Shown: one piece after another, positions 18,170 to 24,586 of the stretch | Layout of the letters: each line of letters begins with the position of its first letter | Position numbering within the stretch: position 1 is the stretch's first letter | NCBI GenBank assembly: GCA_029378245.1 | Contig: JARKIF010000005.1 | Span: 2,480,001-2,544,000 of the forward strand | Length of the DNA: 64,000 nt | Source of the DNA: Roridomyces roridus | Lineage: Eukaryota > Basidiomycota > Agaricomycetes > Agaricales > Mycenaceae | Direction: 5' to 3' | Notes under the pieces: model-generated | Databases searched by the model: none | Seen by the model: the letters and a program-made list of their open reading frames with translations, nothing else | What the model was told of the DNA's origin: nothing | Position numbers and translations under genes: made by a program

Positions 18170-18451
18170 AAATCATGTTGTTGTGAATGGACGACTCGTT
18201 GTATTTTTTCTTAGTCGTTGTAGTAATTATTGATTGGTTTTTTTGGAGTATTTCTGCAACGGGCAATCTTTGTTGAAGATCTTGTTATCGGGAACGCGGG
18301 GAGGTATCATGATTTTCTTGTGATATCCAGGAACTGGCGCCGTTCCCAGTCTTCCAGCGCGCGGAGAAATCACAACAGTCGTGAAAAAATCGATGTTCAT
18401 TCAGTTACTTCGGGAACGCGGGGCTGAAAGTACCATGATCTCGTCGACCAG
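18170..18451. other. Intergenic DNA left of the transposon
   Basis: 3' flank of the preceding gene up to the transposon target site. The corresponding right flank runs from 23679 into the 3' end of the convergent gene at 23803, so the element sits between two convergent genes. Confidence 0.5.
18446..18451 (+). repeat. Left 6-bp target-site duplication (GACCAG)
   Basis: GACCAG directly precedes the transposon's TACGGTAAGC end and is repeated exactly after the other end at 23673-23678. Confidence 0.85.
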
Positions 18452-18569
18452 TACGGTAAGCGAGACGGTTGAGGTTCGTTTCCAGGCTGAGAGATGTCAG
18501 ATGTCAAACCTGTCGGATAGATAACCGTGATAATCATCAATCTATCAGCGGCCGGGATGTTATCACTGA
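18452..18569 (+). repeat. Left terminal inverted repeat
   Basis: 118 bp, reverse complement of 23555-23672 apart from about three substitutions. The outer end reads TACGGTAAGCGAGACGG. Confidence 0.9.
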
Positions 18570-18793
18570 TGATCTCTGTTCCGTACTCGGCAAGATGATT
18601 TGCCGAGCGTGTGTTGCATGTGATGTCTGTTGCGCAAATCATGTAAAATGAAGACTGTTCCACTGATTGAAGTGCTCTACATTAGAACAGTAAGCCTGAG
18701 CAATACCAGAATGCTCAGTTTGGAATCAGTGATGAAATCACAAGCAGATCAAAAAGGTAGAGCTCAATTGTTCGGACACGCTACTCAGTACAG

Positions 18794-21288
18794 CTAGTCA
18801 TCGCCGACATCCTGGTCATCGCCGTCTTCACCAGGACCCGCGCCCTCTGATCCAGAAGCCTCAGTTGCATCTGGGCCCGGAATATCTGCCGGGAGCTCCA
18901 AGGGGAAGATGTCGTCAAACTCGAGCCGTTTGCACAACTGGTTGCACTGGTGAGTGTTGATGAAAGACTCAATACCCTCGAGACCAAAGTCTCCAAGGCC
19001 GGAACCCCTGTATAAAAACATTAATTTAGAGCAATGAGACTAGGGACAGACACTCACCCGTCTTGAGTGTGGGTCATGACATCAAACAAAACCAAACCAT
19101 CATGACCACGGACCGTAGCGGGGGTTCCTTGAATATCAGCCATAACAAGTGTTCCGGTGGCGGAACCGAACACATAATGTGCAAAGCTGTGAATGGTGAG
19201 GTGCGTGAGGTCGGAGCCACGAGCCTTGTGGTTGAGTGTGGAGGTGAATTGAATGACAGCCGCCGCACGCTTGGGCTCAACCATCCACGTCATTCCCTCA
19301 TCCTCGAAGCTATCAAGGCCAGAGGCCACGCTGGGTGAGCGGGTCACTTGAACCAGCATCTCTTGGGCAAGGTAGGCTGAGGAAAACTCGATGACTAGAC
19401 TATAGTTTAGGGCAGTCTTTGAGAAAGGGTCACGGTGACGCACAGTTAAAAATTGCAACATCCATCTCCTTGCAATATGCCACAAAATCTCCAAAGAGTT
19501 CCCTGCCCAGAGCGAGACGGTGGCACTCGGATTCAAGTAGCGCACGATTATGCACCACAGACACGCCGTTAGAGAGCGAGTGAGAATCGTCATCGGATGT
19601 ACGGTAGATACGCTTGGCAACAGCGCGTTCCTCCTTGTCGTTGACAAAGATGGTCATCTGGGTGGAGAAATGAGTTGCAGTTCAGCCCATGCAAATTAAC
19701 CACGCACATCATATGCAAGTTTGGAACCGCCCTTGGCAAAATGCACGTCGTCGATGACTGCTTCAATTTGCCCAGACTTCTGGATGAGTTCTGGCTCGTA
19801 CTGGGGTGGATGGACGGAGATGTCACATCTCTCAAGTGTTACACGCGACTGAGTCTTGGGTGTCATAAGTGCGGGAGTGTGGCTGGAGCCGGCGGCACCA
19901 AAGCGCGACCCAAGGGTTGAACCGATGTCTAGAAAAAAGTAGAAACAAGATGAGACAAAGCCCGTAGAAATTTCACGCAATAGACATACTTGAATTGGTC
20001 AGTGCACGAAGACGCTTACTGAGGCCCCCAGAACTGGTACCCGAGATGGCGCGCTTTCGACTGGTAGAATTTGGTTCGTCTACATTGAGGTTGCGTGCCA
20101 CCGCATCGAGCTCTTCACGATCTCCGTACTAAGAAAAGTTAAAACCTGAGTCAATATAAGACAGGCATTCACGCACCGAGTCCATGTTCACCACCAACTC
20201 GAGGCAGAGTAGCTTCGTATTATGGCCCCGGGCAAGGGTGCGGAAGATACTGGGAATATTGTTAACGTACGTCGCAATTTTCTCAGTTGTTGAGGAATGC
20301 ATCATATAGAAATTGGCCAAACTGCCGGTCATTGAGTTGGGTTCGGGAAGGCGATTGCCGGACCAGCGTAGATCAACGTCGCCACTACATGAGATGGAAT
20401 GAGATCAAAGGTATGTACGCAAGACGAGAGCAGTGGACTTACATCTCAAGTGGGAGCATCCCAAGCTTGTACTTGACAAATTGCGGCGACACAACATCAA
20501 CAATTTCTTGAACGAGGTCTATCAAATACCATTAGATGAGTTGAAAACTTTTTTTGGCAAGAGAAATACATACCTGGCATGGGGATGGACGACCGGTACA
20601 GCTTGATGAGGTTGCCAATCTTGGTATTGGTTGCCTTTGAGTCGCTCATGCGAGTCTACAACATGTTCAGTTGAACAAACAGGCAGTTACTGTGAGGAGG
20701 AGAAGAACATACCATTACTGCAAGCCGAATCATATCCTCCGCCTGGCCACCAGTCCCTCCCTCGTGGAAGATCAGAGCGGCCGTGTGCAACGAAGTGCCG
20801 GCTCTGGTGGTGCCCACAGAAGTACGCAAGCGCTGTTTCATGGCAGCAGCGCGGGCCTCATAAGTCTCCGGCACACTGTTTGTGTTGTTGTTGTTGGATG
20901 TCGATCCGCCTTAGCCCCAGTCATCAAAGGTAGGAATGAAGAAAGGAACAGAAGAAAAACATACCCTGGGTGCCGGAAGTGGCACTACCATTCTCCTTCC
21001 GAGCCTCGTCGACACAGCGGGAAGCACCACAGGTCTGGATGGTGCCAATCAACGGCATGTTGTTGCGGCGTGTGAGGCCGCAAAAGGCGCACTGCGGTTG
21101 TTCCTGCCACACAGTAGTCAGAATGGGTATTGTTGGGTCCACAGATCACTTACCTCAAGCTGCTGGTAGTCTGCAGTGTCGCGTTTAAACTGAGACAACT
21201 TCTCGCACTTTTGACAGATACTGTCATCGGTGCGGAGACGGAAAGTGGTCCCACAGTCGGAACATTCGGAGGGTGCGGTCTCGGTCAT
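18794..21288 (-). CDS. Alpha-type (MHCK/eEF2K) protein kinase carried by the transposon
   Basis: Eleven exons (21154-21288, 20965-21103, 20713-20909, 20574-20655, 20443-20518, 20177-20384, 19990-20128, 19708-19928, 19444-19657, 19058-19394, 18794-19007) join in frame to 653 residues. The N-terminus has zinc-ribbon-like cysteines (CSDCG, CQKC, then CAFCG and a later Cys pair). A spacer with a basic nuclear-localisation-like SRKRAI follows. The C-terminal third is an alpha-kinase domain: VAKRIY with a candidate ATP-contacting lysine, MTWMVEPKR, FAHYVFGSATGTLVMADIQG, then a Gly-rich segment and HQCNQLCKRLEF, the zinc-binding His/Cys block typical of the fold. Alpha-kinases are numerous in some mushrooms. 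The substrate is unknown. Its location between the inverted repeats makes it cargo. Confidence 0.85.
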
Positions 21289-21898
21289 TCCAGAGTTAGT
21301 TATTTGGGGGAAGTTCAGTGAAAGACTGGGAAGGGACCTTCGTGCTTTTAAATCTCGTGAATGGTCGGTTAAGTTTGAGCAGCTTGAGCATCCTAGGCGG
21401 CGCCAGTGATGCGCTTTCAGCTGAACGGAGTAAGTGTCGACGGGGTTGTGCAAAGCAAAAGAAAAAAAAGACGGACTTGAACGGACCTTGGACCAACTGT
21501 GAATTACGGAGTGGAACGGGAATGAGCCGCCGACTGGAATTCAACGGACTGGAACGGACTGATTCGGGTGGACGGACTTGACCGGATTGCTTTGCAAGAA
21601 TTGGCTTGGCTTGAACAACGGACTGGAACGGGCTTGAACAGGGAACAACTAATAGAATGATTAGCATGATTACTTCCCAATCGACTAACCGCTGTTCAAC
21701 ACAAGTTCAACAACAATTGAAAGGATTACTCACCTGTATGCTCAGTCAGCCACCAACGGCCCCGGCATGTTGGGATGTGCATTAGACGATACAATCGTCC
21801 GCTCGGCACCTCCATGATGTTTCCAGGTGCGTCGGAATATTGTGACTTAAAAGCTCAGCGAGAAAAATATCCCTTTCATAACGCACCCACCAAACACG
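21289..21898. promoter_or_regulatory. Bidirectional promoter region of the transposon
   Basis: This 610-bp gap separates the start codons of the divergent kinase and transposase genes, so it must drive both. Part of it (21471-21640) is a degenerate array of GGACTGGAACGG / GGACTTGAACGG words, which could be binding sites for the transposase or a regulator. Confidence 0.5.
21471..21640 (+). repeat. Degenerate GGACT(G/T)GAACGG word array
   Basis: The words GGACTTGAACGG, GGACTGGAACGG, GGACTTGACCGG and GGACTGGAACGGGC recur irregularly within 170 bp. They lie inside the divergent promoter of the transposon. The array is imperfect and has no fixed period. Confidence 0.6.
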
Positions 21899-23493
21899 AT
21901 GCCAAATCCTACTGGCAAAAATGGGCATCCATCTCAAGACCGTGAGTTTGCAATGACACATCTCCCAGTTGAATCCTGATAATTCCTTAGCTCCCGACGA
22001 TGAGAAGCTTCGGGAGGCCCTCCTCAAATATGCACGGCAGGGATTAAGTCGCGAGCACCAGATTTCGGCTTTGGCGTCCAATTTCAAGTATCATATTAGG
22101 TGTGTTCGATGTTCGCTACCGCTTTGGCTGTCTGATGATTTTTTTCTCAGACTAAGCTCTCTCCGCAAACTCAAAGAACGGCTCGGCATCAAAGCCAGTG
22201 TGCGCACGCAGAAGCTGTCCGTGGACCAGGTCAGACAAGCCGTTGTTGATGTGGTGGAGAGGGATCCCGCTCAGCTGCGTGGACCGGCATTCATCAAAGA
22301 CCAACTTCGTCTCAAAATGCTATTTGCTCCCCGGTGTGTTACTATCTTCTCCACAGCAATTCAGCTGAAAAATCCGCAAGTGATCTTATCCGCCAAATCA
22401 TGGTTGAACACTACCCCGGTGGCTTCGAAGTTCGCTTCCCTGGCCGCAAGAACCGTCGCGTAATTCGTGTTCCTCTGCGTGCGAGTGGTCCGTACTATGA
22501 AATTAGTAGTGATGGACATGAGAAACTCGCACCTGCTGCTCTCCGCATGGGTGGAGTGGGCTTTTCCATCTACGCATTCAAAGACAAATTCACCGATGCA
22601 CTGGTTTTCATCAAAGTTTTACCAGACATACGTAGCGCCGGGGCTGGGGGGCACATTTTCCTTGACTTTGTTGAGCACACCGGATGTGAGTACTTTAACT
22701 CAGATGTGTCTGACCGTTCACTCACAAAGCATTCCTTTTATCGCAGTCATTCCCATCCAACTGACGACGGATAAGGGTTCTGAGGTTGGATGGATCTATG
22801 CATTTATGGCGGCACTGAGGTATGTGGTCCATAATTTGCGGCACATCCGCTGACCCTCTTTTGTCAGAGAGATGTATGCCCCCGACATCGATCCAGCACT
22901 ATATCCATTCCATGTCCTGATCAAGAGTGTTCATAACACTGTAATTGAAGGATTTTGGCGGCACTTGAAGGAGAAGTTGGGTTTGAATTTGAAGGATTAT
23001 CTGTTGAGAGGCTGGGCGGAGCATCTGTTCAACCCTCATGATCCATTACACGAGTAAGTTTAATCAACTCAGCCTGCCCTGTGATTTGACTTACATTGGG
23101 TAATGTAGGCCTCTTTTCTATTGGATCTTTTCTCCTCTCATCCAGCGGGAACTGGATGATTTTGCCGACTGGTGGAACAATCATCGCGTTCGACACCAGC
23201 ACGACAAGATAATGCCGTCGGGGCATGTCCCATCGCACGCTATGGAGTATCCTGAACTGTTTGGGGCGCTTGACTGTCGAATCAAAGTCCCCCAGGTTGC
23301 AATTGATGCACTGCGGGATCAGATCAGTGGTGAGGAAGGTCCTAAATCACAGTTTCAAAGCTGGCCAGGCCTCACGGCAGAGTTTGATGTGTATGCATGC
23401 CGGGTTTATGAAGAGATTGGAGAACCCACTCTTACTATGGAAACAGGTTGGGATGTGTTTGTTAATATGACTGTTGCAATGACTGTGGCGTAG
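21899..23493 (+). CDS. Integrase-core DDE transposase
   Basis: Seven exons (21899-21941, 21991-22099, 22151-22333, 22381-22685, 22747-22819, 22868-23053, 23109-23493) give 427 residues. The N-terminal part (LREALLKYARQGLSREHQI, then LRKLKERLGI) looks like a helix-turn-helix DNA-binding region. The catalytic core is of the retroviral-integrase type: the first Asp in SSDGHEKL, the second in TTDKGSE, the Glu in HNTVIEGFWR, spaced as a D,D-35-E triad. Tryptophan-rich WWNNHRVRHQH follows. Similar proteins are annotated as integrase core domain proteins in many Agaricomycetes. It would cut and join the ends of the element. No frameshift is seen, so it is probably active or recently so. Confidence 0.88.
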
Positions 23494-23554
23494 CTAGAAT
23501 ACCATGTTCGATGCACTCATACCACATCACTTCCGTTGAGTTGGCCGAGTAGCC

Positions 23555-23672
23555 TCAATGATAACATCCCGGCTGCTGATAGATTGATGATTATCACGGT
23601 TATCTATCCGACAGGTTTGACATCTGACATCTCTCAACCTGGAAACGAACCTCAACCGTCTCGCTTACCGTA
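23555..23672 (-). repeat. Right terminal inverted repeat
   Basis: Reverse complement of 18452-18569 with about three substitutions. The outer end is ACCGTA at 23667-23672. Confidence 0.9.
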
Positions 23673-23678
23673 GACCAG
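23673..23678 (+). repeat. Right 6-bp target-site duplication (GACCAG)
   Basis: Exact repeat of 18446-18451. Removing the element plus one copy joins the left flank to GTTTTGAAG on the right, which would be the empty site. Confidence 0.85.
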
Positions 23679-23802: not shown

Positions 23803-24586
23803 TTACCCAGAGAAGCTGAGGCCATCAAGCTGGGCAGTGAACCGCGCAGCCGCGAGGATGGTGGCGTCCTGGAGGTTGTTGTTGGCGAACCCGCCAACGC
23901 ACTGGCTCTGGAAGCCAAGGAGGGTGGCGACGTCACAGTTGGGCTTGGCCGAACCGTGGCCGCATCCACCGTTACCGTTCGTCTGGGAGACGGCAGGTCC
24001 CGCGCATTTGCCGTTAAGGAACCCGCAGCAGCCCTGCTGGCACTCCGAGTCGGCGGCACAGACCTCGAAGACGGTCTTCTTGCTCGACTGGGCGACAGCG
24101 GGTGCAGCGGGCGGGGGAGGTGCGGCGGCAGAGCCAGAGCCAGCGTTGTTGCTCGACGCAGAGGACGGGGTGAAAGGGATGTTGTCCAACTGGGAGACGA
24201 AGAGGGCGGCAGATTGGACTGCGGGCGATCCAGAGTTGCTGCTGGTCGCACCCGGGGCGCAGTCGGACAGGCCGAGGGCGTGGGCGACGTCGCAGTTGGG
24301 CGCAGGGCTGCCGAAGCCGCAACCACCGTCACGGGTCTGCGCGACGGCGGGGCCGGCGCATTTGCCGGTGTTGAACGCGCAGCAGCCTTGCTGGCAGTCC
24401 GAGTCGACCGTGCAGGGACCAGTGACGAACTGGTTTCCGCGGCGCTGGCTGGCGTAACGGGAGGGGAGTTCGTGGGCCTGGACGCCGATGGCAACTGAGA
24501 GAGACAAAAGTCAGATAGGGATACTCGTCAATGGGAAAGAGATGCTCACCGAGAGTGAGGGCGACAAAAGTAGCAGTGAACTTCAT
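23803..24586 (-). CDS. Secreted Cys-rich protein with two repeat domains
   Basis: Two exons (24550-24586, 23803-24494) give 242 residues. The N-terminus (MKFTATFVALTLVAIGVQA) is a clear signal peptide. The mature protein has two copies of one Cys-rich module: C-x4-DSDCQQGCCAF-x-TGKCAGPAVAQ...GGCGFG and C-x3-DSECQQGCCGF-x-NGKCAGPAVSQ...GGCGHG, each ending in NCDVA and a further Cys. A Ser/Ala/Pro-rich linker with PPPP separates them. Modules of this type occur in small fungal secreted proteins related to biotrophy-associated effectors; whether it acts as an effector or a wall protein cannot be told. A TATATAA lies about 155 bp upstream. It is convergent with the gene beyond the transposon. Confidence 0.8.

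What the first reader, a model, noticed from the sequence alone, without database searches (positions are those of the whole stretch)
18452..23672. Intact DNA transposon carrying an alpha-type protein kinase
Seen directly: 118-bp terminal inverted repeats with about three mismatches, an exact 6-bp GACCAG target duplication, and two complete, oppositely directed spliced genes. One is a D,D-E integrase-core transposase, the other a 653-residue alpha-kinase with an N-terminal Cys-rich region. Cut-and-paste transposons rarely carry a kinase as their second gene. The kinase could act on the transposase, on host chromatin or on host defence, or be a passenger. If this pairing recurs, transposition could explain the known expansion of alpha-kinases in mushrooms. 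I found no prior description to cite.
Basis: partly seen in the sequence, partly recalled or inferred. Interest (0 to 1): 0.85.

Follow-up and report, generated by a model that had tools for sequence, protein, structure and literature searches.

The report
Mushroom transposon carrying an alpha-kinase gene
An intact, recently mobile DNA transposon of a mushroom carries, next to its transposase, a gene for an unusual protein kinase; nearly all such kinase genes found in this genome sit beside a transposase of the same kind, so the kinase looks like a regular part of the transposon and not a stray passenger.

Summary
The 5221-bp element (18452-23672) has 118-bp TIRs with 3 mismatches, a GACCAG duplication, and head-to-head genes for a 653-aa alpha-kinase and a 435-aa D,D,E transposase. 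The genome (Roridomyces roridus by protein identity) has five copies, 99.8-100% identical, all with the kinase gene (one frame broken), and an exact empty allele, so the insertion is recent. Termini TACGG..CCGTA, 6-bp duplications and gene layout fit the IS3EU superfamily. "No prior description" is wrong: Kojima 2025 states that fungal TET+ IS3EU families carry transposase and alpha-kinase genes in opposite orientations. Added here: 20 of 21 alpha-kinase matches lie within 8 kb of a similar transposase (19 head-to-head; about 0.15 expected by chance); 0 of 40 other PF24764 loci have one within 10 kb; catalytic residues are invariant in 16 relatives; one copy pair gives dN/dS 0.11; the kinase has N-terminal Cys motifs and a predicted ubiquitin-like middle domain. 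Best reading: an established second gene of fungal IS3EU that serves the element; substrate unknown. This genome fits the idea that such transposons explain alpha-kinase expansions.

The parts
18446..18451 (.). left target-site duplication GACCAG
   Evidence: exact repeat of 23673-23678; single copy in the empty allele C482:16597-16896
18452..18569 (+). left terminal inverted repeat (kinase side), begins TACGGTAAGCGAG
   Evidence: 118 nt, 3 mismatches against the right TIR
18794..21288 (-). alpha-kinase gene, 11 exons, 653 aa: Cys pairs C9/C12..C25/C28 and C50/C53..C70/C75, predicted ubiquitin-like fold about 146-284, alpha-kinase domain about 350-620
   Evidence: splicing; Pfam; identical to public P0001; model and fold; Cys positions read from the sequence
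21289..21898 (.). 610-bp region between the two start codons, likely a shared divergent promoter (inferred)
   Evidence: coordinates; measured; head-to-head order in 19 of 20 paired loci
21899..23493 (+). IS3EU-type transposase gene, 7 exons, 435 aa, D164/D230/E273
   Evidence: splicing; PF24764; conserved columns; integrase fold
23555..23672 (-). right terminal inverted repeat (transposase side), ends CTCGCTTACCGTA
23673..23678 (.). right target-site duplication GACCAG

Best explanation
The element is an autonomous-looking, recently active IS3EU-superfamily cut-and-paste transposon. SHOWN: structure, 6-bp TSDs, near-identical copies, an exact empty allele, open transposase and alpha-kinase genes read away from each other. 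SHOWN: in this genome alpha-kinase matches are tied to window-like transposases at many diverged loci. INFERRED: the transposase binds the long TIRs, excises the element and inserts it with a 6-bp stagger; the kinase, co-expressed from the 610-bp divergent region, is a catalytically competent helper that raises the element's success. The most likely route is phosphorylation of a nuclear protein that limits expression or transposition (host chromatin, silencing or repair factor), with the transposase itself as next candidate; the Cys-rich N terminus and the predicted ubiquitin-like domain would place it on its target. Estimated likelihoods: IS3EU identity 0.95; active kinase 0.85; kinase benefits the element 0.75; host protein as main substrate 0.4, transposase 0.3.
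For: Identity: TACGG..CCGTA termini, 118-bp TIRs, 6-bp TSDs, integrase core with no Cys in residues 1-160 and so no HHCC motif, against the IS3EU features in passages of PMC12730594 and PMC10045372. Activity: five copies 99.8-100% identical; empty allele. Kinase as regular component: 20 of 21 PF02816 matches within 8 kb of a window-like transposase, 19 of the 20 head-to-head, about 0.15 expected within 10 kb by chance; 0 of 40 other PF24764 loci have one within 10 kb. Kinase and transposase hits share a contig length in Mycena kentingensis, M. amicta, M. alexandri and Hohenbuehelia grisea, the last with consecutive locus tags HGRIS_006587/006588: 4 of 17 non-self kinase hits, where only the longest contig of each cluster is listed. 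Constraint: in 16 kinases aligned (of 18 hits), at 26-73% identity, K414, H543, D557, Q559, D575, G586, G588, H602, C604 and C608 are invariant, the stretch 525-614 aligning to MHCK-A; dN/dS 0.11 over 93 codons, one pair, C146 vs C458. Kinase and transposase distances correlate over 7 species, r 0.94, 3 of 5040 permutations as high. A Cys-pair motif like the kinase N terminus was picked up in 5 of 6 other loci scanned by pattern.
Against: No expression, kinase-activity or transposition data. The C13 copy has a frameshifted kinase and open transposase, and the C79 kinase exon frame is cut short, so the kinase can be lost, or need not act in cis. 13 of 33 window-like transposase loci had no PF02816 match within 10 kb; several are short or weak matches, and C480 does hold kinase N-terminal-like pieces. 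For 6 of the 21 kinase matches (C201, C57, C334:1.49 Mb, C1, C301, C469) no IS3EU-like terminus was located, and the C1/C301/C469 transposases are only 30-31% identical with E 6e-7 to 1e-5. The C20-C257 comparison gives dN/dS 0.60 on only 6 changes. Co-divergence partly reflects species relationships, and of the 7 pairs 4 besides the window's share a contig length.
Confidence: 0.75

Rival explanations
1. Passenger or captured host gene: the kinase serves the host or nothing, and is only carried along.
For: No activity shown; one of five copies has a broken kinase frame and C79's kinase exon is cut short; alpha-kinases are reported as an expanded family in rusts (passages of PMC4469406 and PMC5295586).
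Against: Pairing and head-to-head order hold at 14 loci outside the window's family, most with transposase matches about 30-50% identical; catalytic residues invariant in 16 relatives; dN/dS 0.11 in the largest comparison; of 21 kinase matches, none was shown to stand apart from both an IS3EU-type transposase and an IS3EU-like terminus.
Confidence: 0.15
2. The kinase acts directly on the transposase, switching DNA binding or assembly on or off.
For: Divergent neighbouring genes and correlated protein distances (r 0.94).
Against: Correlation partly follows species history; no docking or phosphosite evidence; in rusts and Tuber the same superfamily also carries a TET/JBP enzyme proposed to act on silencing marks (PMC12730594), which favours a host-side target.
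Confidence: 0.3
3. The alpha-kinase is a later insertion nested in a kinase-free transposon, or a chance neighbour.
For: 13 of 33 window-like transposase loci have no kinase match within 10 kb.
Against: All five full copies have it at the same place; 14 loci outside the family have it in the same head-to-head order; paired TIRs with direct TSDs enclose transposase plus kinase-like sequence in C101 (an internally shortened copy), C146 and C480.
Confidence: 0.02

Closest known systems
TET+ IS3EU families of rust fungi and Tuber (Kojima 2025, PMC12730594)
   Same: 6-bp TSDs, TIRs longer than 30 bp ending TAYGG..CCRTA (stated there for the rust families), transposase and alpha-kinase genes in opposite orientations (passages and part 1 of the discussion seen).
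   Different: Those carry a TET/JBP gene between the two genes; the window element has only a 610-bp gap there. No PF12851 match was found in the genome, but that search's controls also stayed silent. Host here is an Agaricomycete.
IS3EU/GingerRoot superfamily in general (PMC10045372)
   Same: TA..TA termini, TSDs usually 6 bp, DDD/E integrase-type core, no HHCC motif (passages).
   Different: The main text does not contain the word 'kinase' (0 occurrences).
Alpha-kinases MHCK-A, eEF2 kinase, TRPM7 (ChaK)
   Different: Here N-terminal Cys pairs and a predicted ubiquitin-like middle domain precede the kinase, and the gene is transposon-borne.
KDZ transposons with TET/JBP genes in mushrooms
   Same: A cut-and-paste transposon with a modifying enzyme as second gene (PMC12730594 section 3.2).
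   Different: Different transposase lineage; Kyakuja families have 7-bp TSDs and no TIRs.

Membership tests
IS3EU | 6-bp target-site duplication | tested here: met
   GACCAG, GTCATG, ATCTAC at 3 of 3 solo insertions; ATCGCC on the outer ends of the paired copies
IS3EU | TIRs over 30 bp ending TAYGG..CCRTA | tested here: met
   118-bp TIRs TACGG..CCGTA; features from PMC12730594
IS3EU | DDD/E integrase-type transposase without HHCC motif | tested here: met
IS3EU | Transposase groups with Repbase IS3EU transposases in a tree | not testable with these tools
   Repbase sequences and the paper's supplements not available here
TET+ IS3EU | TET/JBP gene between transposase and alpha-kinase | tested here: not met
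   the gap is 610 bp, too short for a TET/JBP gene; the PF12851 search of the genome found nothing, but its controls were silent too
TET+ IS3EU | transposase and alpha-kinase genes in opposite orientation | tested here: met
   19 of 20 paired loci
Alpha-kinase family (PF02816) | full-length domain above curated cut-off | tested here: met
   87.6 bits against cut-off 21.3, profile 1-185 of 185
Alpha-kinase family (PF02816) | catalytic Lys, D-x-Q, Gly-rich loop, zinc ligands H..H-x-C-x3-C | tested here: met
   K414, D557/Q559, G586/G588, H543/H602/C604/C608 invariant in 16 aligned sequences; MHCK-A alignment covers 525-614, so not K414; the naming of the roles is recalled
Alpha-kinase family (PF02816) | protein kinase activity | not testable with these tools
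   needs an assay

The most novel reading that the evidence does not exclude
The alpha-kinase is a core, dedicated gene of fungal IS3EU transposons: a Cys-motif / ubiquitin-like / alpha-kinase protein that overrides a host limit on transposition, making IS3EU a eukaryotic cut-and-paste transposon with a protein kinase as a standard component. The alpha-kinase 'gene-family expansions' reported for rusts and suspected for mushrooms would then mainly count IS3EU copies.
Probability: 0.45. Interest if true: 0.78.

Novelty: new member of a known kind. Interest (0 to 1): 0.52.

Why it matters
If the kinase is a working part of the transposon, phosphorylation becomes a new handle on how eukaryotic DNA transposons control themselves or disarm their hosts, testable with a 5.2-kb element that appears to have moved recently. 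It also bears on how alpha-kinase counts in fungal genomes should be read: published expansions in rusts (PMC4469406, PMC5295586, passages seen) may measure transposon load, not signalling complexity. That extension beyond this genome is an inference.

Tried and rejected
Chance TIR or TSD: rejected (five copies, own TSDs, empty allele). Nested kinase insertion: rejected. Kinase-free copies of this family: none among the five full copies; the remaining TIR matches (16 in all; only the best candidates are scored) were inner ends of the paired copies and four arms of two 83-85%-similar palindromic MITE-like stretches, by eye one duplicated locus.

Literature (listings unless said): alpha-kinase + transposon + Agaricomycetes, 2 papers; KDZ + fungal + kinase, 3; IS3EU, 35; alpha-kinase + IS3EU, 1; alpha-kinase + fungal genomes + expansion + basidiomycete, 3; alpha-type protein kinase + transposon + fungi, 0; Roridomyces roridus + transposable elements, 0; a kinase-expansion search, 162 papers of which 10 were listed; MHCK/EF2 kinase, 4. 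Opened: PMC12730594 (outline, passages, section 3.2, part 1 of 2 of the discussion), PMC10045372, PMC4469406 and PMC5295586 (passages). I saw no genome-wide kinase-IS3EU tally in these, which does not show that none is in print.

Full report
What is there. The window element spans 18452-23672 (5221 bp), with 118-bp TIRs differing at 3 positions and an exact GACCAG duplication. Reading GT-AG introns gave a minus-strand 653-aa alpha-kinase and a plus-strand 435-aa integrase-core transposase. One transposase intron is only 23 nt in this model, which the public protein shares. The kinase model equals a public Roridomyces roridus protein letter for letter; the transposase equals another except residue 295. 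Window residue 295 is W; the other four copies have R.

Is it mobile? G000 holds five full copies: C442 (window), three on C113, one on C13, at 99.83-100% identity to the window's. The two further solo copies have their own perfect 6-bp duplications (GTCATG, ATCTAC). The window's flanks joined with one GACCAG match another contig, C482, at 300 of 300 bases: a precise empty allele, so the insertion is recent and, by inference, polymorphic between haplotypes or nuclei. The other three joined sites returned the two flanks plus diverged matches that run across the junction (76% on C431; 89% on C113:163477; 71-72% on three contigs). Both genes are open in 4 of 5 copies; in the C13 copy a 1-nt deletion breaks the kinase frame while the transposase stays open.

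What it is. Termini TACGG..CCGTA, 6-bp TSDs and a DDE integrase-type transposase without an upstream HHCC motif fit IS3EU as described in passages of PMC10045372 and PMC12730594. The transposase model (mean pLDDT 87.4) matches retroviral integrases and, by Foldseek, TnsB, MuA and IstA; D230 and E273 are invariant and D164 near-invariant in 36 aligned sequences. Membership by phylogeny against Repbase could not be tested. [quoted passage not shown] The window element is a two-gene form without TET/JBP.

Does the pairing recur? A PF02816 search of G000 gave 21 matches, all over the curated cut-off. Of these, 20 lie within 8 kb of a transposase locus similar to the window's, 19 of the 20 head-to-head; about 0.15 would be expected within 10 kb by chance. 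The exception, C20, ends at a TACGG terminus shared with the C257 family, with unrelated flanks. The odd one in orientation is C201. None of 40 other PF24764 loci has a kinase match within 10 kb. From the other side, 20 of 33 window-like transposase loci have a kinase match within 10 kb; the 13 without include short or weak matches, and one (C480) has kinase N-terminal-like pieces the profile does not cover. Both termini were shown for 7 of the 21 kinase loci, one terminus for 8, none for 6; the C1/C301/C469 group rests on a weak transposase match alone. Complete TIRs with direct duplications were shown at C101 (an internally shortened copy), C480 and C146. Exon-wise profile searching makes all counts lower bounds. 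In other species, kinase and transposase hits share contig lengths in M. kentingensis, M. amicta, M. alexandri and H. grisea, the last with consecutive locus tags; 4 of 17 non-self kinase hits, only the longest contig of each being listed.

Is the kinase under constraint? Across 16 aligned relatives the presumed catalytic and zinc-ligand positions are invariant. One copy pair (C146 vs C458, 93 codons of one exon) gives dN/dS 0.11 with 23 synonymous and 12 non-synonymous changes; shorter comparisons of C146 with four copies gave 0.16-0.19 over 41-46 codons, while the C79 frame is cut short in that exon. A closer pair (C20 vs C257) gives 0.60 on six changes, too few to weigh. Kinase and transposase distances over seven species correlate (r 0.94; 0.83 without H. 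grisea; 3 of 5040 permutations as high), partly because both follow the species.

Most likely working. The transposase performs excision and insertion; the kinase, divergently encoded, helps the element. That it is a helper is inferred from the pairing, conservation and low dN/dS. The company of TET/JBP genes in related elements hints at a host-silencing target, but direct action on the transposase is nearly as plausible. Short palindromic derivatives with related TIRs and an ATCTAC duplication suggest that such elements can be moved in trans.

A side result. Two copies on C113 stand in inverted orientation 6577 bp apart, and the outer flanks of the pair, not each copy, carry a duplication (ATCGCC). 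The outer flank translates like a copia-type element (by eye, recalled motif). The interior is host DNA with a frame matching DNA_methylase PF00145. A 480-nt piece of it is 100% identical to C455 and 98% to C491; the left end maps to both and the last 49 bp to C491. This looks like a macro-transposition in which two IS3EU copies carried a host segment to a new site.

Verdict. Observation confirmed; the superfamily and its kinase were known in print; the genome-wide tie and its bearing on alpha-kinase expansions are the useful additions. New member of a known kind, interest 0.52.

Noticed in passing
G000:C113:735869-753133 (L009, L075, L010): Two inverted copies of this element flank 6577 bp of host DNA with a DNA_methylase-like frame; only the outer ends carry a duplication (ATCGCC), and interior pieces also exist on C455 and C491: an apparent composite transposon that moved a host segment.
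   Followed up: partly
L009 5504-5744 and its mirror in L010: In both composite copies the inner (transposase-side) end is duplicated: one right end lacking its last 2 nt is followed by a second complete right end.
   Followed up: no
G000:C46:607128-607312 and C122:14114-14298 (L014, L013): About 185-bp palindromic MITE-like stretch with TIRs 83-85% like this element and an ATCTAC duplication; the two places have matching flanks by eye.
   Followed up: partly
G000:C13 copy (L012): One-nt deletion at the position matching window 19651 breaks the kinase frame while the transposase frame is open.
   Followed up: yes
window kinase residues 146-284: Predicted ubiquitin-like fold between the Cys-rich N terminus and the alpha-kinase domain.
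   Followed up: partly
G000:C480:2310579-2316520 (L071 80-6021): IS3EU-like element with TIRs and CACGGC duplication that holds two kinase N-terminal-like regions in opposite orientations but no PF02816 match.
   Followed up: partly
G000:C57 and C79 kinase-transposase pairs: Kinase and transposase are 7.2-7.8 kb apart here, about twice the usual gap; an extra gene or nested insertion may lie between.
   Followed up: no
window 23803-24510, minus strand: Open frame just outside the element with repeated Cys-rich, secreted-looking sequence (by eye).
   Followed up: no
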